A stretch of DNA of 64,000 bases from Pseudovirgaria hyperparasitica (lineage: Eukaryota > Ascomycota > Dothideomycetes > Acrospermales > Acrospermaceae), in assembly GCF_010093815.1 (NCBI RefSeq), contig NW_022985555.1, positions 1,581,552 through 1,645,551 on the forward strand, written 5' to 3'. Both the position numbers and the translations under genes were made by a program. Below the pieces are notes generated by a model. It saw nothing but the letters and a program-made list of their open reading frames with translations, made no database searches and was not told where the DNA came from. Shown one piece after another: positions 12,911 to 40,729 of the stretch. The stretch's first letter is position 1. Every line of letters begins with the position of its first letter.

Positions 12911-13644
12911 AGTAAAGTAGCGATATTAGTATATAAGTAGCGATTAGCAAAGGAAGCCGCGGAATCGTAGAGAATTATACTAAAGCACGGTGATTTAACA
13001 GTTTTTAGTATAGTTTAGCGCTAAGGACGGCCGCCTAAAAGGAAGAAGGTGAAAGAGATATAGATCTTTAAAACATTCTAAGGAATTAAGGAACTTCCTT
13101 AGAAAGTTCGAACTTAGAACTTTAAAAAATTTAACTAAAAAAAAGACTTAGAAAAATAATTTACTAAGAGAAATAGACATCAAAAATCAGTGCCAATCAG
13201 TATAGATCAGTATAGATTACTAAAGAGATTAAAGAAGTTATTATTAAAGAAAGATGAAATTAAGAAAGCTAAAAGAAAATATAAAGATCTATATAGATCT
13301 ATATAAACTCGTACTAATCTATCTAGAAGAAGTAAGATCGCTTTAAAATTAAAACCAAAAAACTAAAAACGCTAGATAAAAGAGATATATTATTACCGAT
13401 CGGTATAGATCCAAACCGATTAAGTCGGAGTAGGAGTAGAAGTACTAATTACCGTGATGGTTATATCCAATTCCTTTCGCTGGTTCTTATTTAGCATAGT
13501 ATAGAGCTTTATAATATAAGTCTCTAGCCTTTCGTTCCGACGCTATAAATTCTATATAGCGCGCCTTATAGCTATAAACTTCTCTATAGAAACCTACGGA
13601 GCGGTAGAACCCGGGACGGAGAGGGATAGACCGGCGCGGGCACG

Positions 13645-13699
13645 CTAAGAATTATATAAATTAGCGAAAAGATTTAACGATCGGTATAGAACCACATAC
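13645..13699 (-). other. predicted spliceosomal intron 2 of antisense gene A
   Basis: 55 bp; donor GTATGT, branch-like GCTAAT, acceptor TTCTTAG, all close to ascomycete consensus. The upstream exon ends and the downstream exon starts in phase 0, and the frames on the two sides differ, so the intron is needed to join them. Confidence 0.75.
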
Positions 13700-13859
13700 C
13701 TTTAGTATAGAAACTTCTAGATTAGAGCTATCTTCTCTAAATTTACGGCTCTTTAGCACGCGCGAGAAAGGAACCTTAGCCTTTTTACTAGAACCTTTTC
13801 TAGGAATTCTAATATCGCCGGTATATAGAAAGAAGTCCGAAGTGGTAGAGATTTTAGCA

Positions 13860-13921
13860 CTATTATAGAGATTAATATATATTAGTAAGAATCTATAACG
13901 ATTTAAGAAAAACGATATTAC
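13860..13921 (-). other. predicted spliceosomal intron 1 of antisense gene A
   Basis: 62 bp; donor GTAATA, acceptor AATAG, with CTAAT upstream of the acceptor. It splits a Ser codon (AG|T) and joins two frames that are otherwise out of phase. The donor is weaker than that of intron 2. Confidence 0.65.
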
Positions 13922-14869
13922 CTAGTAATCGCGGTAATAATAGCTATAGTAGATTCCGATAAATCCTTACGGATCTTATTAGAATCGTACTCCTAGGCGT
14001 AACCCTTGCCTTAGGTATATAGCTCGTAGAAAGCCTTCTCTAAGGTGTTACGATCGGTAGTACCACGCTCCTTATTAGTAAGGGTTACTAGAGGCCTAGT
14101 AGTAATCTATATTAATATAAGTAAATCTACGTAAAGTTCTTCGAACTTACTTAAATACCTATAAGTAATGACGCTTCTTAGTCATGTAAGTGCCGTATAT
14201 TATAGATTTAGTACTACCGTGAGTAATATACGACGGAAAGCGACAACTATAATAATATATAGCTAGATTATTAGAGCCCGGCCTAGGTCGGGGTAGATTA
14301 ATAGCTTTCGATATGTCGGTAACGTATACGAGATAGGGATTATTCGAAGGCGCCTATTTCCGCGCTAATTACTTTAGAGTATCGAGATTTCGGGAAACTA
14401 TATTAAGATTATTATTAATTTATGCAGATTATTACGAATTATGTTATTACTAGCTAAGGACGGCACGAAAATTAGTAAATTACGTAAATCGCACTAAATT
14501 ATAGTAAATCTACATAAATCTATATCTATAAGGATCGGGTAATATACCTAATGATCTAAAAAACTCTATAAAGAGTTAAGAAGTTTTTTAAAGAAAGGAA
14601 TATTTCTAAGAAAAGATTTTAATATAGGTAGCACCCGGGCTTACCTAATTACATTACGTGATACGCTAGGCCTAATTAGATAATCTCACCTATATAAGAA
14701 GTTAAGATAGATAAAATCTAGTTTATTAGGAAAACGCTTATGTAAATCTTAGATCAGCGAATATTAGTAAGTATCTAAGACGAAGCGTAGAGAACGACTA
14801 AGGTCTTGCGAGACTTAGGATGGGGATATAGAGATAGATAATGATCTAGGTTACTAAGGGCAGCTTCCT

Positions 14870-14885
14870 AGAGGGAAGGGATAAT
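14870..14885 (+). promoter_or_regulatory. polypurine tract of chromovirus A
   Basis: AGAGGGAAGGGATAAT abuts the 3' LTR. In LTR retrotransposons this tract primes plus-strand DNA synthesis. Confidence 0.8.
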
Positions 14886-15394: not shown

Positions 15395-16603
15395 TGTTAG
15401 GCACGTGCCTACTAGTTAATTATACATGTATATAGTAGTTATATATAAGTAGTATACTCCACCCTTAAAGTAGTAGCTTTAAGATTCGATCCTTTTAGTA
15501 TAGTTAGTTAGTACGTAGAGCCCGCCTTCTTATATAATCTTAAAGCTACTATGGGGTTACGGGTTTAACTCTCGGTCTAGTTAACTATTATTTAATTTTT
15601 ATACGATTCCGTTTAGCTTACTACGTTATATATACTTTATATATATAACGGATAACATAGTAGTAATGTTACTACGGTAAGTTAGCGTGTCTAGTACTAG
15701 AGGCGGTATTACGAATATTAATTATATGTATATGTATAAGGAGGCGGGCTCCACGCACCAACCAACTATACTAAAAGGACCGAATCTTAAAGCTACTGCT
15801 TTAAGGGTGGAGCACACTACTTATATATAACTACTACATATATATAGAATTAACTAGTAGGCCACGTACTCCTCACGTGCCTAATATTATCCCCCTTTTC
15901 AAAGGCACGTGTCCTTACACGTCATGGGTATACTACCTTACGAAAGATAAACTAAACTAGCCGCAACGGGCCTAGTATAAACCATATATATACATAACTA
16001 ATACTCGTAATGCCGCCTCTAGCACTAGACACGCTAACTTACCATAGTAACGTTACTACCATGTTATCCGTTATATATATAAAGTATATATAACGTGGCA
16101 AGCTAAACGGAATCGTGCGAAATTTAATAACGGTTAACTAGACCGAGAGTTAAACCCGTGACCCCGTAGTAGCTTTAAGATTATATAAGGAGGCGGGCTC
16201 CACGCACTAACTAACTATACTAAAAGGACCGAATCTTAAAGCTACTACTTTAAGGGTGGAGCACACTGCTTATATACGACTACTATACACATATAGAATT
16301 AACTGGCAGGCCACGTGCTCCTCACGTGCCTAACAATATGGTTTATACTAGGCCTAGTGTAGCTAGCGCGTATACTAGGCCTATTATAGCTAGTTTAGTT
16401 TATCTTTCGTAAGGTAGATGTCTATAACGCGTAAACGCACGCGCCTTCGAAAAGAGGAGATATTATTAGGCACGTGCCTACTAGTTAATTATACATGTAT
16501 ATAGTAGTCGTATATAAGTAGTATGCTCTACCCTTAAAGCAGTAGCTTTAAGATTCGGTTCTTTTGGTATAGTTAGTTAGTACGTGGAGCCCGCCTCCTT
16601 ATA
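15395..16603 (+). mobile_element. TRIM (miniature LTR retrotransposon), outer copy
   Basis: A non-autonomous LTR element. The 140-bp LTRs lie at 15395-15534 and 16464-16603 (TGTTAGGCACGTG start, CCTCCTTACA-type end, RIP-altered) and are flanked by perfect ATATA duplications (15390-15394, 16604-16608). The internal part is about 320 bp, non-coding, and ends in a purine-rich tract (AAAGAGGAGATAT). A second TRIM of the same family lies inside in opposite orientation (15735-16335). Without it the element is about 603 bp. It has no gag or pol and must have been mobilised in trans. Confidence 0.9.
15735..16335 (-). mobile_element. TRIM, inner copy nested in the outer TRIM
   Basis: Two 152-bp LTRs (15735-15886 and 16184-16335) in minus orientation, flanked by perfect ATATG duplications (15730-15734, 16336-16340). 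A minus-strand polypurine tract (TTTGAAAAGGGGGATAAT, read from 15904 back to 15887) adjoins the 3' LTR. The internal region is the same as in the other copies. The LTRs contain two CACGTG-type motifs separated by a few bases in place of one in the outer copy, which explains 152 versus 140 bp. It is visibly less RIP-mutated than its surroundings. Confidence 0.9.
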
Positions 16604-16608
16604 ATATA

Positions 16609-18740
16609 CTCATTATTATAGAAATAGGTTTACTATATATATTGCAAGTTAATAACTAATAGCTACGGTAGTAAGTATACTAGTAGTAAGATAGATAATA
16701 GAACGAGTATACCCGGTATCTTATCGTTTTTATCGACGTCTTTCGCGCTAGTAGTATAGGGCTATTATATTTACTAATTAGTTAAGAGTTGGTATTCTAG
16801 TAGATGGATAGAGCTATTAGATAATTTTACCTAGTTACTTACTAGAGTTAATATATACCGCGCGGTCGCTCCGGATATTCTATATTAACTATATAAGGGT
16901 ATATTAGAATATACTTTTAATTAGATAGTCTTATATATTATTAATTAAGAGCGTATAGGATATAGATTAAAGGGTATATTTACTAGTATACCCTCTATAG
17001 AAGGAGTAAAGAAGGTAATCGATAAGTAATTTACGTCTATTAGAGTATTCGGTTGTTATAACCTACTTACGTATATAACTTTAGTAATATAATAGATAGG
17101 GGTAATATTTAAGCGTATACTAGTAGTATTTATAGTTACGTTTAAACCACTCCTATATTATAATTAATACTTTCTAAGCGTAGTGCGGGCAGTTATTAAT
17201 ATATATATATTAGCGGCGTACTATACGTATAATACATAGATACTAGTATACTTAGAAGAGGCTATATTACGCTTAGATAACCTAAAATACTAGTTTATAC
17301 TATATCGTAGAGATAAATTAGAGGATAATTATTTTAACTTTCTAAAGTTCTATATATTGTCGTACCTAGTTAATACCATTAAATACTATAGTTCGTTATA
17401 TCTAATATTAGTAGAGCTACTAGAGTAATCTTATATTATAGTAAAGGAATTATATTAAGGTTTAAATAAGAGGGAGACGTTTCTATAGTAGATGCTAGTA
17501 GTAGATATATACACGATAAATACTAAAATCTCTAGTAGTATAGAGGTGGCGGCTAGTACTAGTATATTAGTGGCCCCTAGCCTAGAGTAGCTCGATAATA
17601 CACGTAAGCTAGTTGGCTAGCGGCGTATTCTAAAGGAGCCACGCTAGAGTAAATATATACTCTATGTCTTATAGAGTTATAGACTATCTACGTCCTACTA
17701 GACTACTATTAGTAACCTCTATAATATATATAGTAGTAGTTTTATATTACTTAATGCGGTTACACCCTTTATATATAACTATTATAATCGGCTTATTAGG
17801 GATAATATATTAAAAGAAGTAAATATTAAATATATTAAAAAGGACCCTTCGTAGGCACGGGTCCTTCCTATCTATATATATAAGACTATATATATACTAA
17901 TATAACTAGATAGAGATATATCTATAGAGGCCTTCGACCTAATTCGGGTAAGGTATACCCGTAACTAGTAAAAGAGTAGTAAGGCTAGGGAGGATTATAT
18001 AATAGTATAGGAGTTTAATAAGGGTAGTAACCACCTTAACGGAAAGCGGGTTAGTAAAGTCTATATATTTCTAGAGGTATATAATATAGAGAGCATTAAT
18101 ATAACTAGTAGTATAGTAGCGCGATTTCTAGATACGTTAGTTAAACTACTTAATAACTTAGATAGAGGTAATATTAATACTATTAGTGGCCTTATACTAT
18201 TACGTATAGCGGGTTAAAGGTCTAGTAATAAGACTTATATAATAGATAGGTTCCGTGTCTACGAGCTAGAGTATATCCTACGCCCTATATAGATTATATT
18301 ATATTAGTTAGTTACGGATAGTTTATTCTAGTTAAACACGTATAGTAATTAGGGGATCTATAATAAGAGATATAACCTAGACTTCTAGGCTATAAATAGA
18401 TGAAACGTGACCGTAGCGTTAAAACACGGGTGCGTGTTATAAGTCTATCGCTATCTACTACTACCTACCGTAGTATACCGGTATATACTAGTATATAGCG
18501 GAAGTTATAGTTTATATATAGTAGTACTCGATAGTCGTATCCTATACTAGGATATCTCTAAGAAATAATCGTGGTTTATTACGATCGGTTCTATAAAAGG
18601 CTTATATTTAATAGCTATCTATAATTTTAGCCAAGGAGTATCTAGGGATGCACCTCCTTATTACCTAATAATTACTAGCTAGTATAAAAACTCTACGCCT
18701 CTAAAAGGGGTATATAGAACTTAAAGAATCCTTATTCATA
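16609..18740 (+). pseudogene. Plavaka-like transposase relic, C-terminal part
   Basis: One frame continues from the middle segment. Around 16860 it reads VAPDILY, TAA (former Gln), LYKGILEYTFN, resembling the PDLLHQL-KG block of Plavaka transposases. Around 17000-17180 come a SIPSIEGVKKVIDK segment and FKPLLYYN. Around 17225-17480 comes the C-terminal block AYLEE-type, LDNLK, FNFLKFYILSYLVNTIKYYS, ending near NKRETFL: the Asn-Phe-Pro-Lys...His...Gly-Ser...Thr-Asn-Arg pattern of that family's conserved tail. Such enzymes are cut-and-paste DDE transposases found in fungi. The terminal inverted repeats were not located. Confidence 0.65.
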
Positions 18741-19749
18741 GATAGAACTAGATATAGATAGTATTAACCTAATATAGATAGATTATATATATTAATACCC
18801 TAAAATCCAAACTATGTCTCTAGGCCTACTAGACCTAGCTTGCACCTAATTCTAATATTTTTATTATTTACGTTTACGCCTTATTAGATACCGGGTATAT
18901 AACGAGTCTATAGTTAAGTAAGTGTTAGGTACGTAACGAGTCTATTAATAAATAAGTGCCGGGTATATAACGAGTCTATGTAAATAAGTATAAATAAGTA
19001 TATACCGGGTATGTAACGCTCTTACTAGGGAAACGTCTTCCTTAAGTATCTTCCCCTTCTAATATTTCTCCTTCTCTTTCTTTATTCTTTCTCTAGTCTT
19101 ATAAGTATAGTTAGACTTATATTACTATATTATTAATATATATATTCTTATATAGACTATTAGAAACTACGGTAACTAGATATACGTTCTTATAATAGAT
19201 AAATATACTATACTAATATATTACATTATTCGTGTTTAATATAAGGGTTTACTACTATAATTATTTATTATTACGCTTGTCTATCTCTTCTTAACGATAG
19301 TACTAATTAATAGCGACCTATTATAGAGATAATAGTTAGTATTATATACTTCTCTTAAATATTCGTATATTAATATTATATAAGTATATACTTTGTAGAG
19401 GTCCTCTATTCTTCCCTTAAGCTACCTAGACTATTCTCTAATTGCTAAAAACTCTTATATCTAACTATTTCTACTATTTATTTCTTAGTTCTACTTATTA
19501 GGCTTTAAATAATAGTAAACTATAATAGATTAGTAGTTATCTATATTTTACGTACGCTAAGTTAGTATACCTAAATATAATAGATAATAGTATATTTATA
19601 ATAGTATATACTAGATCTTATAGTATTCCTCTTTAGTAGTAGATCTATATAGTTATAAAGACGGCCTACTATCCTATTATATCTATATACTATACTACTC
19701 TTTTATTATATATAGACGTTATTACTAGAGTAGGGCTATTGTCTATTAT
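18741..19749. other. non-coding or unidentified stretch with degenerate tandem repeat
   Basis: No recognised gene. At 18886-19015 the motif CCGGGTATATAACGAGTCTAT followed by an AATAAGT-like tail repeats about four times with 30-45 bp spacing; a related series lies in element C at 40750-40915. The rest is AT-rich and RIP-degraded and runs up to the TRIM at 19750. Confidence 0.5.
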
Positions 19750-20329
19750 TGTAAGGAGGCGGGCTCCACGCACCAACCAACTATACTAAAAGGACCGAAT
19801 CTTGAAGCTACTGCTTCAAGGGTGGAGCACACTACTTATATACGACTACTACACACATGTAGAATTAACTAGCAGGCCACGTGCCTAATAATATCTCCCC
19901 TTTTTGAAGGCGCGTGTCCTCACGCGTCGTAGGCATGCTACCTTACAAAAGATAAACTAAACTAGCCGTAACGGGCCTAGTATAAACGATGTGCATACAT
20001 AACTAATACTCGCAATGCCGCCTCTAGTACTAGATACGCTAACTTACCATAGTAATATTACTACCATGTTATCCGTCACGTGTATAAAGTATATATAACG
20101 TGGTAAGCTAAACGGAATCGTGCGAAATTCAATAATGGTTAACTAGACCGAGAGTTAAACCCGTGACCCCATAGTAGCTTTAAGATTATATAAGGAGGCG
20201 GGCTCTATATACCAACCAACTATACTAAAAGGACCGAATCTTAAAGCTACTACTTTAAGGGTGGAGTACACTACTTATATACGACTACTATATACATGTA
20301 GAATCAACTAGTAGGCCACGTGCCTGACA
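19750..20329 (-). mobile_element. TRIM, third copy
   Basis: Complete 580-bp miniature LTR element with 141-bp LTRs (19750-19890 and 20189-20329), here with intact TGTAAGG and CCTGACA termini. Perfect ATTAT duplications flank it (19745-19749, 20330-20334). The internal region matches the inner TRIM at 15887-16183 and has no ORF. CpA and TpG survive better here than in neighbouring DNA (for example CTTGAAGC, GTGCATACA), consistent with an element shorter than the length RIP normally detects. Confidence 0.92.
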
Positions 20330-20499
20330 ATTATACTTAACGTTATATATAGAGTATTATATATTTAACGTCGTTATTTCACGTGCTCTATGTTAGTACG
20401 GGATTGGATACTAGTTATATATTTCCCCGCCTCTATTAAATTAACGAGTTATTACTAATAACTATACGGACTACTTACGTTAATATAGCCGTAACGTAC

Positions 20500-22008
20500 G
20501 TATTATACCTACGTCTATTATATAGAGTATATATATTATCTCTCTATTACTCTAGTAATATACTCTATTCTCTATTCTATCTATCTATAGCCACGTCTAG
20601 CTAGCCGTAAATAAATAGCTAAGTAGAAGCAAGTCTCGATATACTTTATATATTTAGGGCGTCCGATAGGTAGAAACTTTAGGTATATATAGAAGAGTTA
20701 ATTTAAGAGGAATTTACTAGCCTATTACTAAACCTACGTAGTAAGAAAGTAAAGGACTACTATATAAAACAAGAGTATTACCTCTAGACGGTTGCGGATA
20801 AATATATATTTATTAATAGTAGTTATACTATTTCATGGGTAGATGCCATGTATTAACTTAATACTATATTCTTAGTATTTACGCGTAACTGGCGGCGGTT
20901 AGCTAAATACTATTATATATATTAAAACGATGCCCCGGGCTAGACAAGCCGTTATAATATTATATATACCCTATAAAACCGCCTAATATATCTAGCTAAC
21001 CTAGTTATTCAACCGTCGGACTACTAGTATCTATATCTTCTAAAGTAGCTATGCCGCCGTATTATATACGTATGCCTATAGTCCTTATCTACGATTATAC
21101 TTAGGTTACCCTAGTACTAATAATGGCTATATAGAATAGTATAACGCCGTTAAATATTAAGGGTATAAAAATATACGATATAGTAGGTCTTAGTATAAAT
21201 AAACTATTAGAATTTATTAGCTTATCTATAGATATACTAGGAGACGTAGACGGTTATAGATATGGTCGCGTCTACCTAGAATACCCGATTCTACTAAGTA
21301 AGTCGAGTGATATAATCCTTTATAAGGATAGTTTAGACTAGGTATTATAGTAGACTATTAAATAGGTACTAGGCTTAGGACTAGATCGGGTGGTTTTCCA
21401 CGTAGGCAATATAAACGGTATATTTAGAAGCCTACTATAATATATTAACTATAATCTAACTATATAGGAACGTTACGCTATAAGTATAGTAGCGGAATTC
21501 CTCTATCTAGCGCGCGTAGATAAGCTCGAGATATATATACGCCGATAGATATTAGTATATATTAATATATTATAACTACTAAGCGGCGTATACTAATATA
21601 TACCGGTATATCTAGTATATACTAGTATAATACCGTCGCTCTTCCGTAGACCTAATACTATTTATATATCTTAGGTTTTTAGTTATTAGTTACGTATAGA
21701 GTTATATATACGGCGGATACCTTACTAGATTTAGGTCTTTTATTAATAGTATATAGGTACGCCCTAGTCCACTTAATATAGGCGTAGTTAACGCTTTATC
21801 TACTTAAACGATAGACGTTAATAACAACGTAACTAGTATATTTATCTATTATATTATTAGCTAGCTAACGTTATATTAGAAGAGTTAAGCGCTACTATCC
21901 CGCCTACTCTACCCGTTAATATTAATATACTAGTAATTATAACCTAATCGCCTTATAAATTAATATATAATGCCGGTACGCTCGAGAGTTTAAGCGAACG
22001 TATAAAAG
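20500..22008 (+). pseudogene. unidentified long frame, left part (split by chromovirus B)
   Basis: A plus-strand frame with almost only TAA/TAG stops. Short recognisable runs are AVADKYIFINSSYTISWVDA-like near 20800 and VVFHVGNINGIFRSLL near 21390. It reaches the chromovirus B insertion at 22008 (SERIK) and continues in the same phase at 30057 after one AAAAG duplication is removed. I do not recognise the family. Length and continuity suggest a protein of more than 600 residues belonging to the repeat into which B inserted. Confidence 0.5.
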
Positions 22009-22246
22009 TATAAAGAGTAAAGACGTAGGATAGTAGTCTAACAGTTCATAGAGAGACATAGGAATGTATTTATAGAGTAATCTTACTCTTATACAAGGTT
22101 AATTCCTAACGAGTAGGAATCGGTTTATACGGTCTACTTATATAGTAACCTCGCTTAACTTAGCTAACTTAACCCAGCTCTAGCCACTACGTGGCTATAT
22201 AGATTAGAATAGTCTATATAGGTCTATTATAGTTCCCGTCCTAATA
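22009..22246 (-). repeat. 3' LTR of chromovirus B
   Basis: 238 bp, colinear with 29814-30051. The minus-strand polypurine tract (AAAAAGAAGAAGGATAT, from about 22263 back to 22247) lies just inside it. Confidence 0.93.
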
Positions 22247-22719
22247 ATATCCTTCTTCTTTTTATACTTCGCCCCGAAGTACTTAAGTATATATAATTCT
22301 AAGTCTCTATAATCTATCGTGTATCTATATATCCGTAACTAAGTTCCTATAACGTTATAACTATCCTTAATATAGGTAAACTCGAGATTCTAGTTTACTT
22401 TTACTAGTTTATGCACGCGCTTATCCCTTACTTCGTGGCTACTACCTAGGATATATAATTACTACTTTAGTCGAGTATATATTTAGCTTTACTCACCTTT
22501 AATTTTATTCTCTAGTATATCCACCTCGCTCTTAAGGTAAGTCGTTAATTCATATACTATCTTCTCTAGTCTAGGTTTAGAAGGGTCTATAGTAGTCTAT
22601 TCTTATTAGAACCGGTCTAATATAACCTATCCGCGTTATTATAGTCACTAATTTAGCTTCGTTAATCGCCGTTAAGGGTAGACGAATATTCCTTTCTTAG
22701 ATCTCTAGCTAACGTGTAT

Positions 22720-24060
22720 ATATAGATATCTAATACTAGTTCTATCTCTAAGCCTACCTCCTCCTCTCGTAAGACTCGCTCTAAAGATATCGCCTCCTCC
22801 CCGGCTACGCCGGCTAAGAAGCCTACCTATCGCGGTAGTATAAAGGCGCGCTCTAAGTCGGAGAAGAGAGTAGCTAGAGCTACTACTACTACTACCTCTA
22901 CTACTAATATAGCTACTAGTCGCTCTAATCTAGGTGATTCTAGTACTAAACTTATAGATAAAGTGGTTATAGGTTCTCCTCTTACTCTAAAGCACACGCC
23001 GTCTACTCTACCTCCTCTAGAGGATAAAGAAGATCTTATTATAGACGATAATTGCGAGCCCTCGCGCTTACCTATACCACCGTCTCGCCGCTCTTCCTTC
23101 CGGTCTAATATAGACTAATTTAGTCGCTCTAGGTTCTTTTAGGACCTTAATATTCGCTCTAAACCCTAGTCTACTAATAATAAGGCCTAGGTCGCCGAGG
23201 ATACTAAACGTAGTCGCGGTTTACGCCATAGGAAAACGGCGAACTACGGTTCGATATACTATAAGTATATTAAGGGCTATACGGCCGGCTCTAAATATCT
23301 CTTTCGCTCTAACTCTAGTATTAGCTACTACTCTACTAACCGCGACGGGCCTATATACTCTACCTTTACTCTACCTACCTACTACCGCTACTATACTATA
23401 ACTAGTAAGACTTATCTATAGGTAAGTATAATAGGCTATCTTAATCTAGTATAATCTAAAGTAGTCCGCGCTAATATATTCTTAGGTTCCTATGCGTATA
23501 TAAGATATATATAACGATCTTCGCGTCCGCGAGACCCTCGGGGGTTCTTATAGCCGCCTATCTACTATATAGAGGGAGTTTAGAGAGTACTATAAGCTCT
23601 TCCTAGAGGTTATTAAAGTATAAGTTACGAGCACGTTAATTATTTTTAACACCTATTAATTTTTCTAGCCGCCGCGAGATCCCTAGCGCCTAGACTACCT
23701 ATTCTAGGGAGTCTATTCTAGCTATAGAGGCCGTAGAGAGGATTCGCTCTATCCCCCCCCGTCCGTCTCGCGCTACTAATAGATCTTATAAGAGGTCTAC
23801 TATTTCTCCCTCTAAGTCGCCTTATAAGAGGGTATATATTCCCTTCTAGATTATTCTAGATTATATTAGCTAACTTTAGACCTAGTCGCTACGCTCCGGC
23901 GCTTAAGGCTCTTCCCTCTAGGCTCTAATAGATCGGGTTATTACTCTAGAGGCTAAGGTCGTCGTTCTCCGCCGCTATATCGTGTAGTTAGAGAGGACTA
24001 TACTAGAGATTAGGACGGATAATAAGATAGAGAAGTAGCTCTATGGTTCTGGCTCTATGT
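22720..24060 (+). pseudogene. antisense intron-containing accessory gene of chromovirus B
   Basis: A gene antisense to the retrotransposon, between pol and the 3' LTR. Exon 1 (22720-23421, 234 codons) starts at ATA TAG ATA (former ATG) and is Ser/Thr/Lys/Arg rich (ISNTSSISKPTSSS, ARATTTTTSTTN); its first 130 or so codons after the second contain no stop. A 64-bp intron (23422-23485: GTAAGT, GCTAAT, TTCTTAG) changes the phase exactly as required for exon 2 (DIYNDLRVRETLGGSYS, REFREYYKLFLEVIKV). A further frame change near 23640-23690 (second intron or indel, not resolved) leads to a C-terminal segment (RSIPPRPSRATNRSYK) and a coiled coil at 23922-24050 (ALIDRVITLEAKVVVLRR). About 425 residues. 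No family recognised. Confidence 0.7.
23422..23485 (+). other. predicted spliceosomal intron in antisense gene B
   Basis: 64 bp with consensus fungal donor GTAAGT, branch-like GCTAAT and acceptor TTCTTAG. The open frame upstream and the open frame downstream differ by exactly the phase this intron corrects (phase 0 on both sides). Confidence 0.8.
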
Positions 24061-24649
24061 ATTAGCTCTATGCCTAGCTCTATATATTCTAGATCTACTA
24101 TAGGTGGTGCGCGCCGGCTCTATTTACCTGGCTTTTATCTATTTTAGTTCTTTTTAGACCGTTTAGATACCCGTTAGCTAGTTTCTAGTAATTTAATTCT
24201 TAACTTAATAATATTATATGTGCGCTCGCTTAGCTTATAACTATCGGTTTCTATATTCTAATTTTCCTTAAGTTATCTAAGTGTGGGCACCGTATATAAA
24301 TTAGTTTATCTCTATAAATTCTATTAGAGTACCTAAACTAGTGGCCTAGTAGTTATTAGTTCGGGTACTCTAACCTTTTATATTTCGTGTTAAGAGTTTA
24401 ATTCTATAGTGGGGTACCTTTTTTTAGGTTCTTAGTCCTATATTTTTCTCGTATATAATGGTCTATATTAGTCCATTCTAGACTCTTCTATATTATTCTA
24501 TTATAGTATATCGCGTCGCGTTCCTAAAATGGTTATTTATACTTTCTTCGCGTCTAGTAACTATACGACGCTTAAATTATAGAGCTACTATATAGAGTTT
24601 TCCTAGTGCGCGTCTAGATTTCCTAGTTTAGCACTTTATTCTCTACGGT

Positions 24650-27600
24650 ATTCTTCTTCTTTTTACGACGACCGCGACGTCGCTATACTTACATTAATAA
24701 TATGCTATTCTATATCTTTTACTTATACGCAGCTATTATAGAACTTAAGATATATACCGCTAGTTCCTAGGTGTCCTCGTCCTTAGTATAGTCCTTCTAA
24801 CGGATTCTATATTTCTAAATACCGTCTTTATTAATTCTATGTTTAATAATATAGTCTACTTCGAACACGTCTAGTCTATCTTAGGGTATAATAGAGTATA
24901 ACTATACGTTCGTGCGGCCATACACGTTAGGTCGAAATCTTTCGAGTAGTAAGACGTGGAACACGTTATAGATTCTTATATCACTTCCTAAGTCGAGCTC
25001 GTAGGCTCTTATACTAATACAACGTTTGATTCGGAAGGGACTAGCCATTTTATAATCGAGCTTCTTATTTACTTATAATATTCGTATATTATAGATGTTA
25101 AGAAGGACCTCGTCGCCCTCCTCGTACGTCTAATCCTTAGCTAACCTATTATAGTACTTCGTATACGAGTTATTTACTTATTAGATTATAGCGCGATAGT
25201 TATGTACGGTTTCGAAGATTTTAATCGCTAATTCCTAAGCGTGGACGTTTACGTCTATTATTTGATTAAATTAGACCGTCTAAGGCTTAAAACCTATCCT
25301 TAGACTACGTCCGAGGTTCGCCTAGAAAGGTATAATACCTATTATACTATAACGACTATTATTATATACGAACTCTACTATACTTAGTAGGGAGGCCTAG
25401 TCGTCCTACTTAAAATTATAGAATACGCGTAGGTAGGCCTCGAGCGTCTAGTTCTATCGCTCTATCTAGCTATCCGTCTAAGGATGAAATGCTATAGATA
25501 TATTTCTATTTATACTTACCATTTCATAGAATAACGTCTAGAATTTAGATGTGAAGGTACTTCCTCGGTCCGTAACGATCCTTTTTAGTATACCATAGAC
25601 CTTAATAATCTCGTTCTAGAACACCTACGCTAGTTCTTTAGATATAATCGTCTTCTACACTAGGATATACCTAGATATCTTTATAAGTCTATCCACGATA
25701 ATAAGAATAGAATTATAACTTATTCTAAGTATCTTACTTAGAGATAAGTTAACTATAAAGTCTATAGTAACGTCTTTCTACATAAAGAGGGGGGCTAAAA
25801 GAGGCTATAAATTCCTATATAGCTTGTGCCTAGGGGCCTTCGTTCTTTAATAAATTAGATAAGTAGCTATCTATTCTTCGACGTACTTAGGTATATCTTT
25901 CTAAAAATAGTACTAACGAATTAAGCTTAGGGTATATATATACCTAAAGTGTCCTACTAGGTTAGCGTTATAGTATTAGCTAACTATATTAAATCACGTG
26001 TTATCTATCGGTATATAGTACTTTCTATTATAGTAAAGTAAGCCGTCCACGAAGGTCTACTTATAGTCTACTTTAGTCCGTAATAACCTATCTTACTATA
26101 TTTTACGTAACTTTAAAACTATCGGGTCTATCTTCTATAGATCCACAATTAACTAGGCAAGGTTAATTAGATATTTACGCCGGGTATTATCGCCCTTCCC
26201 GATAGCGCTAATAAACGGCCTACTAGGGACTTCGGTACCGCGTCTTTAGTTACCGGCTTCAGTCTTAGAGATTCAATTACTAGCATCAACGTTAGCATCT
26301 CGCTAATCGCCTAATAACTTAAAATCCAACCTCGTCCTTAAGAGTTAGGCCTATAGCTACTCTAGAACCCTATAGCTACTATAATCCTAGACGCCTTCTT
26401 TATAGTTAGGTCTTCTTAATATTCTATTAGCTAGGTTTATACTTCTAGGTTAATAGTAGATTATAAAGTAAAAGTTCGTAAGCTACTTAGTCTATTAGAC
26501 CTATCGACGGTTTAAAACCGTTATACTTATAAACCCCTTTAAGTTATAGTAATTAGTTAGTAACTCGACGTTATATATAGTACCTTTAAGATAATATCGC
26601 CACTATTTAAACGACTCTACTATTACTAGTAGCTCTTAGTTATAGATAGTATATCTAGTCTTAACATCGACTATTTTACGTGAGAAGAACGTAACTAGAT
26701 ACTATTAGATCTTTTTAGACTTAGTTAGTCTAGGCTAGGAGAGAATATCTAAGATTATAAATTCTAACGCGTCGGTTTCGACGCGGATAGGTTTAGTTAG
26801 ATTAAAGTGTACTAGTAATAGAGTAGTTATAAATGCCTCTTTGATTTTCTCGAAGGAGGCCCTTTTACCTTCTAATAATTCTATAGGCTACGATTTAATA
26901 TTACGCTATTTCTATCTACCGCGGACCGTAATAGACGAATCTATGGTAGTAGTACACGCGTTAAGCGGTGCTACTAGCCGGGAGAAATGCTTAACGAATT
27001 TTCGGTAGTAATTAGCGAATCTAATAAAGACACGTATATCTCGAACCGATTTTAGTTTAGGCTAGTCTATGATAGTAGCGACTCTATCCCTTTCTATAGT
27101 TATACCTTAATTAGTAATAACGAAGCTAAGGAAGTTAACGTGGTCCTAGTGGAACTCGTATTTAGATAGCTTAATATATAGCTTATGTTTTTCTAGCCTA
27201 TCTAGGACTACGTATACGTGCTAGATATGTTCTTCTTTATTATTAGAGAAGATAAGAATATCATCAAGGTATATAATGCACGTCGTGTCGAGTAGGCCTA
27301 CTAGCGCGTTATTAATATACGCTTAGAAGGTTTCTAGCGCGTTAGCTAGTCTAAAAGGGACTACTATATACTTAAAGTATCTATAACAGGTCCTAAACGC
27401 CGTTTTCCACTCATCGCCCTTCTTAATATATAGGCGGTAGTAGACGTCGTATAGATCGAGCTTAGTAAAGATCTTCGCGCGCCCTAGTCTATTAATAGAC
27501 TTAGAGATAAGAGGTAGTAGGTAATAATTCTTTCGCGTAATATTATTTAGGCTATAGTAGTCGACACATAGACGGAGACTTCTATCCTTCTTCTTTATAA

Positions 27601-28270
27601 AGAGGATTAGAGCTCCGGCTAGAGATATACTAGGCCTAATCCATCCTCGCGTAAGGTTCTTTTCGATATATTCTCGGAGGACCTATAGCTCAGGTTCTAA
27701 TAGAGGGTATATAGGTCCGTATAGGGGTTATTAACCGTCTTCGAGGTTAATAGTAAGGTCGGTAGGTTAGTATTAAGGTAATTCGGACGAGTCGATCGCT
27801 AACACGATATATTAGTATATTTTATACTAATATAGTAGGTTTTCGTCCACTTTAATACTAAGCTCTCTATTTTAAGTAAGTAAGAGGACGTAGATAGCGG
27901 AGATTACCTTTTCGTAGTCCTTCTAGAATTATTCGTCGTCGACTAGCTATACTAGGTTCTATTATAGTAGGTATATACGCTAGCCAGCTATTTTCTAGAT
28001 AAAGTCTAGTTTCGGGTTATATTTTTCGAGCTATAGTATACCGAGGATTATATTAAAGGGACTATCTACTACGATAAAGATTAAGTAGTAGGGTTTCCAC
28101 TTCCCCCCGCTATCCTAGATACCGTATTTAATAGTATAGATACCCTACGATTTAATAGAACTATCGATACTATAGAAGGTAGTACCTATTAGTACTTAAA
28201 TGTTAACGTTAAGTTCTCGTACTCGTTAAGTTAATATAACGTTAGTAGCTAAACTACTATTAAGTATTAC
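24650..28270 (-). pseudogene. pol: pol relic of chromovirus B (PR-RT-RH-IN-chromodomain)
   Basis: Read on the minus strand. The reverse transcriptase includes KGDEWKTAFRT near 27420 and an intact YLDDILIF at 27250-27275. RNase H follows at about 26750-26300. The integrase C-terminal half is well preserved (AFHPQTDSQIERQNQTLEAY near 25490, then EGDEVLL). The chromodomain lies at about 24850-24720 (FEVDYIIKHRINK ... RIRQKDYTKDKDTQEP, with TAG read as Trp). Function in an active element: reverse transcription and integration guided to heterochromatin. Some active-site residues survive, but nonsense codons break every domain. Confidence 0.92.
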
Positions 28271-28299
28271 GGTCTAATATTATCCACGAGGGACCTTAA

Positions 28300-29750
28300 T
28301 GGGCCTAGCCTATAGTTTAATATACTAGTTAGCTAGTTATCCCTCTATTTTAGTTACGTCTACGAGTCGCGAGGGTTCCTTATAGGTAGTTAGTTTTTTA
28401 TATCGTGTACTAGGTAGTTAGGCGCGATATATCCTAGCTACTAGCACTTATAGTATATAACTAACTTAGTATCTATATTAGTATTCGGTGGTTTCCCTAA
28501 GCGGTACTCGGGTACTATATAGCCTATTCTACTATAGGTGTAGTAGGTGACTTTAGGTCGTTTATATAAGTCGTTTCTCGCGTCTTAATATATCGACTAG
28601 TAGAAAGATCCGCGGTACGGGCCTCGTCTTCTCGAGTTCATAGAGTAGTAGCGCCTATAAGGTGTTCCGCGCGATCTATTACTAAACCGGTCCTCTTTAG
28701 ACGATTTTATATTAGATTAGATTAATAGGGATAGTCATGCGCCTATACGACGTTAGTTATTCATTATATGCTAATATCGTTCTATGAGATTCGCGAGTGC
28801 CTAAAGGTTGGTAGAGATAGATATTATAAGGTCGATACGTTCCTTTACGCTTAGGTTAAGGGACCTTTTAAAGTCGTCGTATTATCGAACCATACGATCT
28901 TCCTTAGCTTCTCTCTAAAGAGGTTAGAGGTATTCGAGGAGTTATAACGGGGATTATCTCTCTCGCTATTAAGTCTTAAAGATATGGCTCTAAGCCTATT
29001 CGCGTCGCTCGGCTCTATCGCCGAAGTATTAAAGAAGGAATTCGGTAAACATGTCCTAGTTATACGCATCCTTAGGGTGTTTAATTTAATATACTATCTA
29101 ACGTTTAGATGGCGTTAGGTCTAGGTAGTTCTATACGAACCTAATCTTATTACTATCGTTCGTGAATAGATGGAAGAATTAGCTATACTAGTAAGCCTAT
29201 TTATAAAAGCTCCTTCTGGTTTTACCGTCGAAGTAAGGTAGTTTCTTAGGCTAAGGTAACTAGGATAGTAATAGACTTAGTTAGACTATTTCGGCTTAAG
29301 TTAGTCTATATTAGTATAGGTTAGTTACTACTAGTACTAAAGCGCGTAGTGCGGCTTTAAGTCTAGCGGTTTATCCTTACGCTTCGTTAAGTTTATAAAG
29401 TTACTACTCGAGCTAAGCCTAACGCTACCTCTCCGTGTATAGCTTAGTATATACGTTATTATAAGGCATGGTTAACGTTAGTCGGTTCTAACGAATTAAT
29501 TCGTTAACGTTAATAGGGTCTAGTCTTATAGTAAGGATAGGTCTAGTATAGTATAAACTAGACCGCGATAGAGTATAATAGACTCCTTCCTTATTATCTA
29601 GGTAATCTTCTATAGTTATACGGAATGCTATACTAGTTATTAGTGCGATAGCCTATAGGGTATACTTATTAGTAGAGGTGGTCGTAGAGAGACTATTCTC
29701 TTCGTTTAGATTTAGAGAGAGTCTCTCGTATAAGGTAGTACCACGGGTAT
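28300..29750 (-). pseudogene. gag: gag relic of chromovirus B
   Basis: The minus-strand frame around 29070-28740 reads DMFTEFLL, FGDRAERRE, a Gln-rich segment and SLNLSVKERIDLIISIS, a Gag capsid-like profile. Two decayed CCHC knuckles follow: YTYSRIGYIVPEYR near 28555-28500 and YYKC, two stops, LGYIAPNY near 28460-28420, with most Cys and His turned into Tyr by RIP. The start is likely just inside the 5' LTR (29814), but no ATG can be assigned safely. Confidence 0.75.
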
Positions 29751-29813
29751 TATAGCGTGTAGTAGAAGCTATCTCTATAAGCTACCGTCGTACTATATAG
29801 AGAGAAATTAAAA

Positions 29814-30051
29814 TATAAAGAGTAAAGACGTGGGATAGTAGTCTAATAGTTTATAGAGAGACATAGGAATGTATTTATAGAGTAATCTTACTCTTATATA
29901 AGGTTGATTCCTAACGAGTAGGAATCGGTTTATGCGGTCCACTTATATAGTAACCTCGCTTAACTTAGCTAACTCAACCCAGCTCTGGCCACTACGTGGC
30001 TGCATGGATTAGAATGGTCTATATAGGTCTATTATAGTTCCCGTCCTAACA
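29814..30051 (-). repeat. 5' LTR of chromovirus B
   Basis: 238 bp; its outer end at 30051 reads CCTAACA on the plus strand (TGTTAGG on the element's strand). It retains more CpA/TpG than the 3' LTR copy (for example GGCTGCATGG against GGCTATATAG). Confidence 0.93.
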
Positions 30052-30056
30052 AAAAG

Positions 30057-30480: not shown

Positions 30481-30902
30481 TAATACTATTTACTTATATC
30501 TATATTTACCTAAGCCCTAATTTAATAGCCTTCTATAACGTACTATATACTTAGTTAGTAAGCTACTAGACTCATATAATAGTAGTATACTACCCTACTT
30601 TATATACTACTTAAGCTACTATTACTTTAGCCTACGTTAATCTTAGCTTCCTTTAGTTATCCTTATATTATAAAAGAAAACTTCTATAAACCTTTCCTCT
30701 ACTTATCTTAGTTTTTAAACCTAAATCTTACCTTCTATACTTTATTCCGTGTTAATTATAACTATATATAAACGCTATATCGAACTCGACTCTATTAACC
30801 CTTAAGGTCTATTCTATATAATAGTTAACGAGGTTATATTTATAGTTTATAATATGGATTAAGAACTCGTTATATTCGGTAATATTTAGGACTAGTCTAC
30901 GC

Positions 30903-31190
30903 TTAATATAATTAAGCCTTATATTTAAGCCGAGTCTTATATTTAAGTCGAGCCTTACGTTTAAGTCGAGCCTTATACTTAAGTTAAGCCTTACGTTTAA
31001 GTTAAGCCTTACGTTTAAGTCGAGTCTTACGCTTAAGCCGATTCTTACGTTTAAGCCAAGCCTTACGCTTAAGCCAAGCCTTACGTTTAAGTCGAGCCTT
31101 ACGCTTAAGCTAATTCTTATGTTTAAGCCGAGCCTTATGTTTAAGCCAATCCTTACGTTTAAGCCGAGCCTTACGCTTAAGTTAAAGCTT
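30903..31190 (+). repeat. 18-bp tandem repeat encoding a hexapeptide array
   Basis: About 16 units of a CCTTACGTTTAAGYCGAG-like 18-mer. In the helicase frame each unit reads Ala/Val-Glu/Lys-Pro-Tyr-Val/Ala-stop, the stop being TAA from CAA, so the original unit was about AEPYVQ. Spacing is strictly 18 bp, so the array kept the frame. Confidence 0.9.
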
Positions 31191-34100
31191 ATAATATAAC
31201 TACTATCTTAACTAATAATAAACCACTCGTCTTTAGTATACTTACCGGTAACTACCGTTCTAATAATAAGTATAAACTTAAGAAGGTCTAAAGTAGTAAG
31301 ACTCCCGTTTCTACTAACGCTATCTATTAGATCTCTCTTATATAGGGTAATCTATAGTTAATCTTTAGAAATGTCTATAGTATTAGTAGAGAAATAGATA
31401 GACTTAAGTAGGAATAAGCGAAAACTTAAGCCGAGCTTAAGCTAGTAGTATTTAAGGCTTATAGTAAAGGTTACGGCTTCGAAGAGTTAATTAGTTATAT
31501 ATATAGATTTCTTAAATTCCCTAAGTACCGCTCTTAGATTAAGTTACGTACTCGCTTCTAATAGATTAATAAAGGGAAATTAGTATCCTTAATAAGCTTA
31601 CTCTACTTTAATTATACTAATATCCTTCTATTATCCGACTACTCTATAGTATAGATCTTTAAGGTTAAGTAAGTAGATAACTTTATTAAGTATTTTTCTA
31701 AACTTTCTAATCTTATTATAAGCGAAGTAGATAAAGCTAATATACTATATACTAATACTAGTCTCTACGAAGACCCTCGCGACTTTTAGATTATTAAACT
31801 TATAGCTAGCGAGCTTCTTAGTATAGGTTTTACTATCTCGTTATATATTAGACCTAATATAATATATAAATAAGTAAAGTAATTCTTTAAAGATCTAGGT
31901 ACTTATACTATAGTTTATATCTTACTACCGCTACGTAACTCTATAGATCTTACCGGCTTTAATAATAAGCTTAAACTAGAGAGTAATCTAATTAATTCAT
32001 AGTATATAGAAGTTATTACTCCCTATATATAATATAGTATAATAAGTAGGCCGGACACTTAGCCCTAGATCTCTATTCCCTACCGCGAGTCATTTAATAA
32101 GAAATTTAACTACCTAATATATATTACTATAAGTACCTTATAAGATAAATAGATAGATCTTCTATTATCCTAATTCCAAGATATTACTATTAGATATATC
32201 TAGCTCTTAGATATTACTCGGGCGCTCTTAGCTATTATCTATTCTATTAATACGAAAGGATTCTATTATATAGAACCAGGTAGTCGTGGGTACCTTAAAG
32301 TAGATTTAAAGAATTATAATAATAACGTATACCGCTTTAAAGTCCTTCAATTTTATTTAGGCGTCCTTCTATTTAAATACCTTACTCTAAAAGTCTTTAA
32401 TAAGGTTAGACGTCCTTCTAAAGCATCTAAGGTACCGATTATATTAATAGATATAGTTACTAATATAACTTAAGCTTATTCTAAACATTTTATTCGGACT
32501 AGCGATACTAGTTTAAGTATAATTAGGTTATCTCTTACTACGCTTATAGGGTTCACGGACGTTCCGGCTTTAGTTAGCGTATAAACCTATAATAAGCTTA
32601 CTAAGTAACGCATTAATACATGCTAGAAACTAACCTACTACGCCGTGTAAGCTCCTAGAGACGGTGGCATAGATAACCATGCCGCTTAGGATACGTTTAA
32701 TACGATAGTCCTTAATATTATTATAGACTTGGTATCTATATCTCTAATATATAGGTCCCCTAACCCTAATAATAAGATTCTAGATTATAGTATAGAGCCT
32801 TAGAATACCCTTATTACTCTTTCTAAATTATCTATATCCCTAGATAATAATAAGGACATAAATATAGAATATAGTCACGATGTTATTAGCGATAAAGGTT
32901 CTATTACTAGCCCTATTACCGATATATATATACTCCTAATATTATCTAAAGTCCGCTCTAGTATTCTATCCTCTTTACTACCCTCTATATAGAATCTAAT
33001 ACTTAGTAATAACTATCTAAATCTTTAACCCGTTAACTATAACCACTACGTTAAAGATTATAAAAGATTCTACGATCTCTAGAATATTATATGTTTAGAA
33101 CTATCTCTCTAATAATAGTATATCTATATATAGGTAACGGACGTACTTAGGGCTTAGTTTCTACTTCACGGCTATGGAGGAGCTAGGAAGAGCTATTTAT
33201 GGCTTTATCTACTACTAGCTATACTTCTAATTAACGAAATGAACGGTACTCCTATTATCGCTTATACTACTAAGGTAGTTATCCTATCTAGTAATATAAT
33301 AGCGCACCTCTCTATACTAGGTTCCACCTAAATATATAGAATATATATATATATTATTATCGGCCTAACTAACGAAACCTATAACGATGCTATAAGAAAA
33401 GTATATAAATATATAAGTAATATATTTACTTACTATAAGTCTCTAAAGATACCGGTTATTCTTTAAAGATGCCCCGAAGCCGTTAATTAAGAGGTTTTCT
33501 TTACTATAGCTAGACTATCTTATTATGGTAACCCTCTTATTAGGCTAACCTAGAATAATATAATAGGCGGTACCATCCTTATATAAGCCTAGGCTAACTA
33601 TAGTAAATAACTATTAGAATATAGCACGGATCCCCGTGCTTATCTATAGGAACTATATACTAGTTACGTTACGCTTAAGGTTATTAGACTTATTAAATCT
33701 TAATACTAATATAAATAGATCTCTAAGAATTTCGAGAAAGAAACGGCTTAGCTATTATATACTATCTATGAACGTTACGCTTATAATAAGGATATACCTA
33801 AGGAGAAGTATAATAGAATGAACGAGCTATACCTTGCTACCTAGGACCTAGTTACTATCTACGCCTAGATTTATATAGGGACCCTATATATTATAAATAT
33901 TACTAAGGTAGCCCGTAATATATATCCGATTTTAGTTATAATAGAAGAGGCTATATATATCCTTAAAAGTAATATACTCGGGATTATTATTAATTCTACT
34001 ACTATGGAATAGTAACTAATATTTATTTACGTTAGCGACCTATGCTAGCTTAACATCTACTAGCGTAATAGTACTAATATATAGGCCGTAAACTAGAGGA

Positions 34101-35172
34101 TCTCCTTTATAAAGCGCTAGATATAATATAGTTTCCTAACTACTTACCTTACCGAGTTAGAACGCTTAGTTCCTAGAATAATAAATGTTATATTACTAAT
34201 TACTTACTTGGGTAAGCTAACGACCTTGCCCTATATAACGAATAATGTTAATATACTACTTATAGAGACCGTTTAATAAACATTTAGAATCCGCGGCTAT
34301 TAATACGTTATATATACTAACGTTAACGGGGATCACGCGTATATAGTAAATAACTTAATATATAATATAGACTTATTACGTTTCACTTAGTAGATTATTA
34401 CTAAGCTCTTCCGTTATAGCGTTATACTCGATTACGTGCTCTATATTTCTAAATACGCTACCTAACGTAATCTATTTAAAGGAATAGTTAGGAACTCGCT
34501 TCTAACTATACTTACCGTAGCGGATAAAGCTTAATTTAATACCCTACCTAAGCCGGTATAGAAGCTTATCTAATGGCGTTTATAGGACGGTTCTTAGGGT
34601 TATAATAATAATATAGTCCTTATTAACCTAGTCTAAACCAATTACTTTAGCTTTCTCTTAGAAGTAAACCGTAACGTCGTTACTATTACGCGCGCTAAAT
34701 AGATAATAGTTATTATCCCTAACTTTATATCTCTTAAGAGATAGAAAGTCCTAGACGGCGTACTTAGTAAGATATAGAATAAGTCCTCTAAGATTCATGT
34801 AATATACACGTGCACGACCTCCGATCTAGATAGTCTCCCTCTACTCTCTAATATACCTAATCCCTAATATAGTTACTCTATACTTAGTATTAGAGAGAGG
34901 GGAGAACGAAGCGATTAATAAACTACCGATGGTACTAAGCCCTATAAGCCGCTAGTCTACTATAAATATAATGTTAAAGGATATAAGTCTATTAAGTGTC
35001 TAAGAGGGTTAACGGTTATATATAATAACTATTAGAATATCGGCTATAAAGCTAATGTTTACCCTAAACCCAAGACGCTTATAGGTATGTTTTATTATAA
35101 TTATAAGACTACTAGTTATACTTGGCGTTATTATCCTAGCCGTACTAAATTACTAGCACGTATAAATAGTAA

Positions 35173-35275
35173 TAATCTAGTTAATACTACTAGAGCTAAT
35201 ACTACTAGAGCTAATACTACTAGAACTAATACTACTAGAACTAATACTACTAGAGCTAATACTACTAATAAAGTA
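35173..35275 (+). repeat. 15-bp tandem repeat encoding NTTRA/NTTRT
   Basis: Six to seven units of AATACTACTAGAGCT near the end of the helicase frame, giving NTTRA or NTTRT pentapeptides. No stop is present because the unit lacks CpA and TpG, so RIP could not act on it. Confidence 0.9.
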
Positions 35276-35340
35276 ACTACTAGCGGCTAGGACGATAGAG
35301 ACTACGAGGATACCGACCGAGACGGCGGTGTTACGATATA

Positions 35341-37637: not shown

Positions 37638-37639
37638 AG

Positions 37640-40720: not shown

Positions 40721-40729
40721 AAGTTCTCT

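What the first reader, a model, noticed from the sequence alone, without database searches (positions are those of the whole stretch)
22720..24060. Second antisense intron-containing gene, in unrelated chromovirus B
Seen: 234 codons in exon 1 (no stop in most of the first half, despite heavy RIP around it), a 64-bp intron GTAAGT...GCTAAT...TTCTTAG that corrects the phase, and a coiled-coil C terminus. Position (pol to 3' LTR), antisense orientation, an ATA-TAG-AT start and coiled-coil end are shared with gene A, although the LTRs and proteins are not evidently alike. Inference: an accessory gene class carried by this chromovirus lineage, possibly inherited from a common ancestor.
Basis: partly seen in the sequence, partly recalled or inferred. 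Interest (0 to 1): 0.87.

Follow-up and report, generated by a model that had tools for sequence, protein, structure and literature searches.

The report
Spliced antisense gene in fungal retrotransposon
A decayed jumping element in a fungal genome carries, on the strand opposite to its own genes, an extra gene with introns that was probably once a working protein gene; a similar arrangement has been reported in grey-mould retrotransposons, so it is a new member of a known but poorly understood kind.

Summary
The observation largely holds and can be sharpened. Element B (window 22003-30052) is a Ty3/gypsy chromovirus with pol on the minus strand. Between pol and the 3' LTR lies a plus-strand (antisense) gene, 22726-24038. 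It has the strongest 3-base periodicity in the window (0 of 1260 windows reach it), few stops in one antisense frame over 40 RIP-mutated copies, and, between diverged subfamilies, fewest amino-acid-changing transversions in the antisense frames (49 of 75 against 59.8 expected, P about 0.0003). Exon 1 matches lie within 3.5 kb of 104 of 119 pol ends of this lineage. No similarity to the spacers of elements A or C was found, although pol of A and B is plainly homologous by the same method, so common ancestry with gene A is not supported. The arrangement is known: antisense brtn in Boty elements of Botrytis, and antisense ORFs of plant elements. No RNA evidence; function is inferred only: a nuclear, nucleic-acid-binding coiled-coil regulator.

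The parts
22003..22247 (-). 3' LTR of element B (pol is on the minus strand)
   Evidence: 94% identical direct repeat with 29809-30052
29809..30052 (-). 5' LTR of element B
26477..27598 (-). pol: reverse transcriptase and RNase H, broken by stops
   Evidence: RVT_1 E 3e-22, RT_RNaseH_2 E 3e-16, RT_RNaseH E 1e-12, on a 400-aa piece with X at stops
25526..25990 (-). pol: integrase (H2C2 zinc binding, core), weak matches
   Evidence: Integrase_H2C2 E 0.0016, rve E 0.044, both below Pfam's cut-off
24722..25117 (-). pol end: SH3 (Tf2-1-like) and chromodomain
   Evidence: SH3_Tf2-1 E 2e-11; Chromo E 6e-5, slightly below Pfam's cut-off
22726..23421 (+). antisense gene, exon 1 (232 codons with a stop as the last; Ser/Thr/Lys/Arg-rich, basic N terminus)
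   Evidence: periodicity, stop counts over 40 copies, transversion test P 0.026; 696 bp in 38 and 693 bp in 2 of 40 copies
23422..23485 (+). intron 1 (64 bp)
   Evidence: same length in 40 of 40; GT donor in 31 of 40; CTAAT at the branch place in 39 of 40; acceptor TTAG in 40 of 40; no RNA evidence
23486..23617 (+). exon 2 (44 codons), weakly supported
   Evidence: 132 bp in 40 of 40 copies; two stop sites, both in all 40 copies, while plus frame 0 has one; 6 transversions do not decide the frame
23618..23693 (+). intron 2; donor 23618, acceptor uncertain (23678 or 23693)
   Evidence: needed to join the frames of exons 2 and 3; a 1-bp length difference between subfamilies at 23660 falls inside it; 76 bp in 40 of 40 B copies if it ends at 23693
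23694..23831 (+). exon 3 (basic, NLS-like)
   Evidence: 0 stop sites in 46 codons over 40 copies in the expected frame against 4 and 6 in the other two plus frames; 138 bp in 36, 137 in 2 and 139 in 2 of 40 copies
23832..23885 (+). intron 3 (54 bp)
   Evidence: GT donor 38 of 40, branch GCTAAC 40 of 40, 54 bp in 40 of 40; four stop sites of the exon frame lie in it (23847-23883); 55 bp with GTATGT, GCTGAC, CCTAG in L076
23886..24038 (+). exon 4: coiled coil and terminal stop
   Evidence: 153 bp and the terminal stop in 40 of 40 copies; transversion test P 0.015; 4 stop sites in 50 codons, against 7 and 5 in the other plus frames; eight core positions spaced 4,3,4,3,4,3,4 in L076
24036..24088 (+). 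short tandem array starting at the terminal stop, variable in length between copies

Best explanation
Element B is a chromovirus of a fungus that mutates repeats (RIP). It carries one accessory protein gene between pol and the 3' LTR, read from the opposite strand, with four exons and three short introns of fungal type. The gene would be transcribed from a promoter in or next to the 3' LTR and spliced by the host (inferred). Because the introns lie antisense to the genomic RNA, reverse transcription does not remove them, which would explain how an RNA-copied element keeps introns (inferred). The protein has a basic, Ser/Thr-rich first part, a second basic NLS-like stretch and a C-terminal coiled coil. 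The likeliest role is a nuclear, self-associating, nucleic-acid-binding regulator of the element's own expression or integration, in line with roles proposed in print for antisense ORFs of plant elements (inferred, perhaps 0.4 likely). All 40 B copies and the 12 diverged copies aligned carry stops, at least the one that ends exon 1.
For: Place and orientation: pol domains on minus, ORF on plus. Coding: periodicity strongest in the window, 0 of 1260; 6 stop sites of 232 codons in the + frame against 15-57 in the others over 40 copies; constraint in the antisense frames, 49 of 75 transversions nonsynonymous against 59.8 expected, P 0.0003 (1 of 3000 shuffles), other five frame-strand choices P 0.03 to 0.99. 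Splicing: in fragment L076 (GC 0.50, no RIP bias) about 12 homologous codons of exon 3 run into 55 bp with GTATGT...GCTGAC...CCTAG, followed by an open exon 4; the two are in register only if the 55 bp are removed. In B the stretch is 54 bp, a multiple of three, so the frame is the same with or without it; removing it takes out four stop sites. Intron 2: one base longer in 11 of 12 diverged copies, a difference that would break a continuous frame. Ubiquity: beside 104 of 119 lineage-B pol ends. Conservation similar to pol's: in the C12 copy, against B queries, pol end 72%, exon 1 70%, exons 3-4 67%. Unplanned control: exon 3-4 searched in a wrong frame by mistake scored lower on diverged copies, for example C12 77 against 123 bits, C30:152426 57 against 81 (not tabulated for all). 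Coil: eight core residues in 4-3 spacing.
Against: No transcript data. A codon model trained on the pols of A and B gave minus frames the best score in the exon 1 windows, with small or negative values. Exon 2 rests on little: two stops in all 40 copies, and plus frame 0 has only one. Exon 1 ends in a stop in all 40 B copies and 12 of 12 diverged copies, so a single-exon gene is not excluded. Intron patterns are common by chance here. The acceptor of intron 2 is unclear. Exon 3 is out of length by one base in 4 of 40 copies. The transversion test has few independent lineages (L064-L071 share nearly the same differences); for L075 P is only 0.03, for exon 1 alone with L072 0.22, and one minus frame runs at P 0.03-0.07 throughout. 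No homologue found in three protein searches, so function is guesswork.
Confidence: 0.75

Rival explanations
1. Sense gene: the minus strand of the same stretch codes, as an env-like or pol-extension reading frame, and the antisense ORF is a shadow of low-complexity sequence.
For: Minus frame 0 has no fixed stop over 22662-23139, a longer gap than the antisense frame's (477 against 417); the pol-trained codon model preferred minus frames there, weakly; one minus frame has P 0.03 in the transversion test.
Against: Minus frame 0 has 32 stop sites and the best minus frame 15, against 6 in the plus frame, in exon 1; the constraint is strongest on the plus strand; splice signals and the coil lie on the plus strand. 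Pfam on the minus piece gives only DUF2105 at E 0.019, below its cut-off.
Confidence: 0.08
2. A single-exon antisense gene of about 231 codons ending at the stop before 'intron 1'; everything downstream is noncoding spacer.
For: The stop at 23419-23421 is present in 40 of 40 copies and in 12 of 12 diverged copies, including L064, whose exon 1 has no other stop.
Against: Exon 4 shows constraint of its own in the antisense frame (P 0.015), exon 3 is free of stops in its frame in 40 of 40 copies, and L076 shows an intron with full signals between them. A TAG directly before a GTRAGT donor is also what RIP can make of a usual exon end (RIP specificity recalled, not from a call).
Confidence: 0.11
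3. The antisense RNA, not a protein, is the product: it forms double-stranded or decoy RNA that regulates the element.
For: Such a role is discussed for antisense transcripts of other elements (PMC7264820, passages).
Against: Codon-level constraint, periodicity and coil point to a protein.
Confidence: 0.05

Closest known systems
brtn, antisense gene of Boty-like retrotransposons (Botrytis cinerea; also Sclerotinia sclerotiorum)
   Same: Fungal element with gag-pol bearing a CHROMO domain (PMC4227169, passage) and one additional gene antisense to gag-pol, between pol and 3' LTR (PMC7264820 section 5; the original, Zhao et al. 2011, seen only in reference lists).
Antisense aORF-3R of plant Ty3/gypsy elements (Grande gene23, RIRE2, Retand)
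   Same: Same place and orientation, present in most copies, nuclear protein in Grande (PMC7264820 sections 5 and 7); long pol-3'LTR region, with tandem repeats in about half of Retand elements (PMC11963269, passages).
   Different: Plant hosts and, for Retand, a non-chromovirus lineage; no TRP28 domain (PF04195) or any other Pfam domain above cut-off here.
HBZ and APH-2, antisense proteins of HTLV
   Same: Antisense accessory proteins, nuclear (PMC11963269, passages).
   Different: Analogy of arrangement only; no sequence relation tested or claimed.

Membership tests
Antisense additional ORF class of LTR retrotransposons (aORF-3R) | Lies between pol and 3' LTR | tested here: met
   chromodomain ends near 24722, LTR 22003-22247, gene 22726-24038
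Antisense additional ORF class of LTR retrotransposons (aORF-3R) | Antisense to gag-pol and protein-coding | tested here: met
   the pol-trained codon model did not agree
Antisense additional ORF class of LTR retrotransposons (aORF-3R) | Present in all or most copies of the family | tested here: met
   104 of 119 lineage-B pol-end places (150 of 256 candidates scored)
Antisense additional ORF class of LTR retrotransposons (aORF-3R) | Transcribed, in Grande from an own promoter | not testable with these tools
   no RNA data
brtn of Boty-like elements | Fungal element with a chromodomain pol and one antisense gene at this place | tested here: met
brtn of Boty-like elements | Protein homologous to BRTN | not testable with these tools
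   BRTN sequence not held; three protein searches found nothing, but whether that database holds BRTN is unknown
Retand antisense ORF | TRP28 domain (PF04195) | tested here: not met
   Pfam scans of X-marked pieces and of L064 exon 1 show no such match (63 proteins 1 and 3, 68); RIP damage limits power
   best probability 1.7% over 36 comparisons with A and C spacers, against 98.9 and 99.9% for two pol controls; RIP damage and fast divergence limit power

The most novel reading that the evidence does not exclude
A four-exon antisense gene kept under selection through the divergence of several chromovirus subfamilies, in which antisense placement is what lets an RNA-replicating element keep spliceosomal introns; its protein is a nuclear coiled-coil regulator unrelated to any described family, and comparable genes arose independently in other element families of the same genome.
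Probability: 0.35. Interest if true: 0.62.

Novelty: new member of a known kind. Interest (0 to 1): 0.45.

Why it matters
In the papers seen here, antisense accessory genes of LTR retrotransposons are described mostly in plants and, among fungi, in Boty elements, and their function is open. Here some hundred copies in one genome, in subfamilies of graded divergence, give internal evidence that such a gene codes for protein, is probably spliced, and is conserved to a similar degree as pol. That makes two questions testable: whether antisense placement shelters introns from reverse transcription, and whether these genes share descent or arose repeatedly.

Tried and rejected
Codon statistics trained on the RIP-damaged pols of A and B did not support the antisense frame: in the exon 1 windows the best frame was a minus frame, with small or negative scores; I judge the model unfit because the base composition of the spacer differs from pol's, but it is a result against my reading. 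Selection could not be measured within family B because 40 copies differ almost only by RIP-type transitions. Homology searches found nothing: exon 1 of L009 (2458 candidates, none at E 0.1 or better), a 40-copy profile (the 8000 candidates sharing most words scored, none at E 1 or better), exon 1 of L064 (1293 candidates, none at E 1), PDB sequences (4 matches, E 0.43 to 1.9), Pfam (weak matches only: DUF2105 E 0.019 on the minus piece, LDB19 E 0.053, Lzipper-MIP1 E 0.18, DUF7310 E 0.16). How many fungal proteins that protein database holds is unknown to me. A cysteine motif suspected in exon 1 was dropped: 6 and 5 of 50 sequences have cysteine at the two columns of interest. Literature: searches (open-access papers held; listings seen) showed no description of this element; that is no proof that none is in print. 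Genes A and C were not resolved: with 8 copies each the stop test was not decisive. Errors of mine, redone: (four A and two C loci not turned; redone in 30), protein 2 and (frame off by one; redone in 68 and 67). The minus-frame base composition at the end is mislabelled and not used. The places compared were typed by hand. There 2 of 31 A-lineage places lie within 3.5 kb of a B exon 1 match; I take this as chance neighbourhood and did not follow it up. In one search, L069 and L073 (disrupted) were dropped, and the exon 3-4 profile included intron 3.

Full report
What was checked. The window is G000:C7:1581552-1645551 of an unnamed 35.0 Mb genome in 59 contigs. The TA-rich, CA/TG-poor copies mark it as a fungus with repeat-induced point mutation (RIP; recalled knowledge, as is the rule that RIP makes only transitions). 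Element B is bounded by LTRs 22003-22247 and 29809-30052, 94% identical. Pfam on 400-aa pieces with X at stops places reverse transcriptase, RNase H, integrase (weak), the Tf2-1-like SH3 domain and a chromodomain on the minus strand, in one frame, ending near 24722. The spacer from there to the LTR at 22003-22247 is the 3' end of the element.

Is it more than chance? Exon 1 (22726-23422) has a base-by-phase chi2 of 71.3, p 2e-13; none of 1260 windows of 697 bp at 50-bp steps across the window reaches it. Those at 60 or more are two that overlap exon 1 and groups starting at 30651-30851, by an 18-bp tandem array, and at 34601-34801. In 40 copies (40 of 124 candidates were scored; all 40 used) the + frame has 6 stop sites in 232 codons; the other five frames have 47, 19, 32, 15 and 57. 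Two results spoke for the other strand: minus frame 0 has a longer stretch without a stop fixed in all copies (477 against 417 bases), and a codon model trained on pol gave its best, though small or negative, scores in the exon 1 windows to minus frames. Inside family B selection cannot be measured: only 14 of 1335 columns vary other than by C/T or G/A.

Diverged copies. A protein search of the genome with exon 1 scored 124 of 124 candidates and gave 122 matches, whole or partial, from 100% down to 47% identity, roughly in groups at 80-91%, 64-73% and 47-62%. Twelve diverged copies (of the 122 places) were fetched (L064-L075). Transversions are free of RIP and so informative. Against L064, exon 1 has 27 nonsynonymous of 41 where 32.4 are expected (P 0.026), exon 4 has 15 of 24 against 19.4 (P 0.015), and the four exons together 49 of 75 against 59.8 (P 0.0003, 1 of 3000 shuffles). 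The five other frame and strand choices give P 0.94, 0.53, 0.68, 0.99 and 0.03. Four further copies tested (L066, L068, L071, L075) give P 0.0017, 0.0027, 0.0067 and 0.032 for the gene model, and 0.04 to 0.07 for the one minus frame. These copies share most of the differences, so they are not independent tests. With L072, exon 1 alone gives P 0.22 and the exon 3-4 region 0.03. Exon 2 (6 transversions) and exon 3 (4) are too short to test.

Exon structure. Intron 1 (23422-23485) is 64 bp in 40 of 40 copies, with a GT donor in 31, CTAAT at the branch place in 39 and TTAG at the end in 40; in the 12 diverged copies branch and acceptor are kept in 12 of 12 and a GT donor in 4 of 12. As a bare pattern this is not rare here: 3 in the window, 4.5 expected. 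It leads into a frame of 44 codons with two stop sites, both in all 40 copies; plus frame 0 has one there, so exon 2's frame is not the least broken. The frame of exon 2 is not that of the coil. A one-base length difference at 23660, in 11 of 12 diverged copies, lies in it. Its acceptor could be at 23678 or 23693; a stop fixed in 40 of 40 copies at 23691 speaks for 23693. The third intron is the best supported. A fragment at C1:779000-783000 (L076; GC 0.50 over the stretch, no RIP bias) has about 12 codons homologous to exon 3 running into a 55-bp stretch with GTATGT, GCTGAC and CCTAG, followed by an open frame of 48 codons with a heptad coil and the stop. In L076 the two frames join only if the 55 bp are removed. 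In B the stretch is 54 bp, a multiple of three, so there the frame is the same either way; what its removal takes out are four stop sites of that frame (23847, 23871, 23877, 23883; three in 40 of 40 and one in 39 of 40 copies). B keeps a GT donor in 38, GCTAAC in 40 and a final AG in 40 of 40 copies, and the terminal stop at 24036-24038 in 40 of 40. Over the four exons the expected frames have 6, 2, 0 and 4 stop sites. Exon 3 is one base short or long in 4 of 40 copies.

How widespread. Of 150 scored pol-end matches (of 256 candidates), 119 are at 60% identity or more (lineage B) and 31 at 33-37% (lineage A). 104 of the 119 have an exon 1 match within 3.5 kb, 89 of them at about 1.8-2.0 kb; 2 of the 31 do. 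Of the 15 without, 5 are partial pol matches and 11 have an exon 1 match 5-15 kb away, as nested insertions could leave them; they were not inspected one by one. So the gene is a regular part of lineage B and not of lineage A.

Relation to gene A. Profiles of exon 1, exon 2 and exons 3-4 (40 B copies and 10 diverged copies; L069 and L073 dropped as disrupted) were compared with all six frames of the A spacer (8 copies) and of the C spacer (8 copies): the best of 36 comparisons has 1.7% probability. The same program on single RIP-damaged pol pieces of A and B gives 98.9 and 99.9%, and 0.2% for a mismatched pair. Common descent is therefore not supported, though fast divergence cannot be excluded.

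How it may work. Shown: place, orientation, coding signal, conserved exon lengths, coil. Exon 1 of L064 has 46 Lys/Arg against 17 Asp/Glu in 230 counted positions, and 56 Ser/Thr. Inferred: an antisense transcript starting in or near the 3' LTR, host splicing, and a nuclear protein that self-associates through the coil and binds nucleic acid through basic stretches, regulating the element. The antisense placement would explain why introns survive retrotransposition: in the genomic RNA they are present as reverse complements and are not spliced. It also suggests that the gene entered the element as DNA or that its introns arose there (inference).

Known relatives. The arrangement is in print. 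Boty-like elements of Botrytis cinerea carry the antisense gene brtn (Zhao et al. 2011, seen only as a reference; passages in PMC8365987, PMC4227169 and PMC5987419; section 5 of PMC7264820); the PMC4227169 passage gives their gag-pol a CHROMO domain. Plant elements carry antisense ORFs at the same place (passages and sections 5 and 7 of PMC7264820; passages of PMC11963269), with nuclear location in Grande and a regulatory role proposed. Homology to BRTN could not be tested. I file this as a new member of a known kind.

Noticed in passing
37480-41000 (element C, LTRs 37089-37461 and 48157-48528): Another 3.5-kb spacer beside an LTR, with lowered stop density in plus frames 0 and 1 and moderate periodicity at 38300-38600, opposite to the strand of reading frames that look RT-like by eye; a possible third antisense gene, no Pfam match.
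   Followed up: partly
12950-14870 (element A): Spacer of element A: minus-strand frames are the least broken in parts, but 8 copies do not settle a gene; no profile similarity to gene B.
   Followed up: partly
L076 (G000:C1:779000-783000), 2117-2716: RIP-free fragment of the end of the lineage-B antisense gene sits directly beside a reading frame that looks copia-RT-like by eye, in 50% GC DNA: a relic in ordinary genome sequence.
   Followed up: partly
24036-24088 and L076 from about 2713: Short tandem array (CTCTRTRG-like) starts at the terminal stop of the antisense gene and varies in length between copies.
   Followed up: partly
30878-31235: 18-bp tandem array (about 15 copies) just outside the 5' LTR of element B, open on both strands for 95-132 codons.
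   Followed up: no
34601-35500: Windows starting at 34601-34801 also have high 3-base periodicity, next to a short repeated peptide-coding stretch at 35036-35287.
   Followed up: no
15397-20344: A family of short repeats in direct and inverted order around 15.4-16.6 and 19.7-20.3 kb.
   Followed up: no
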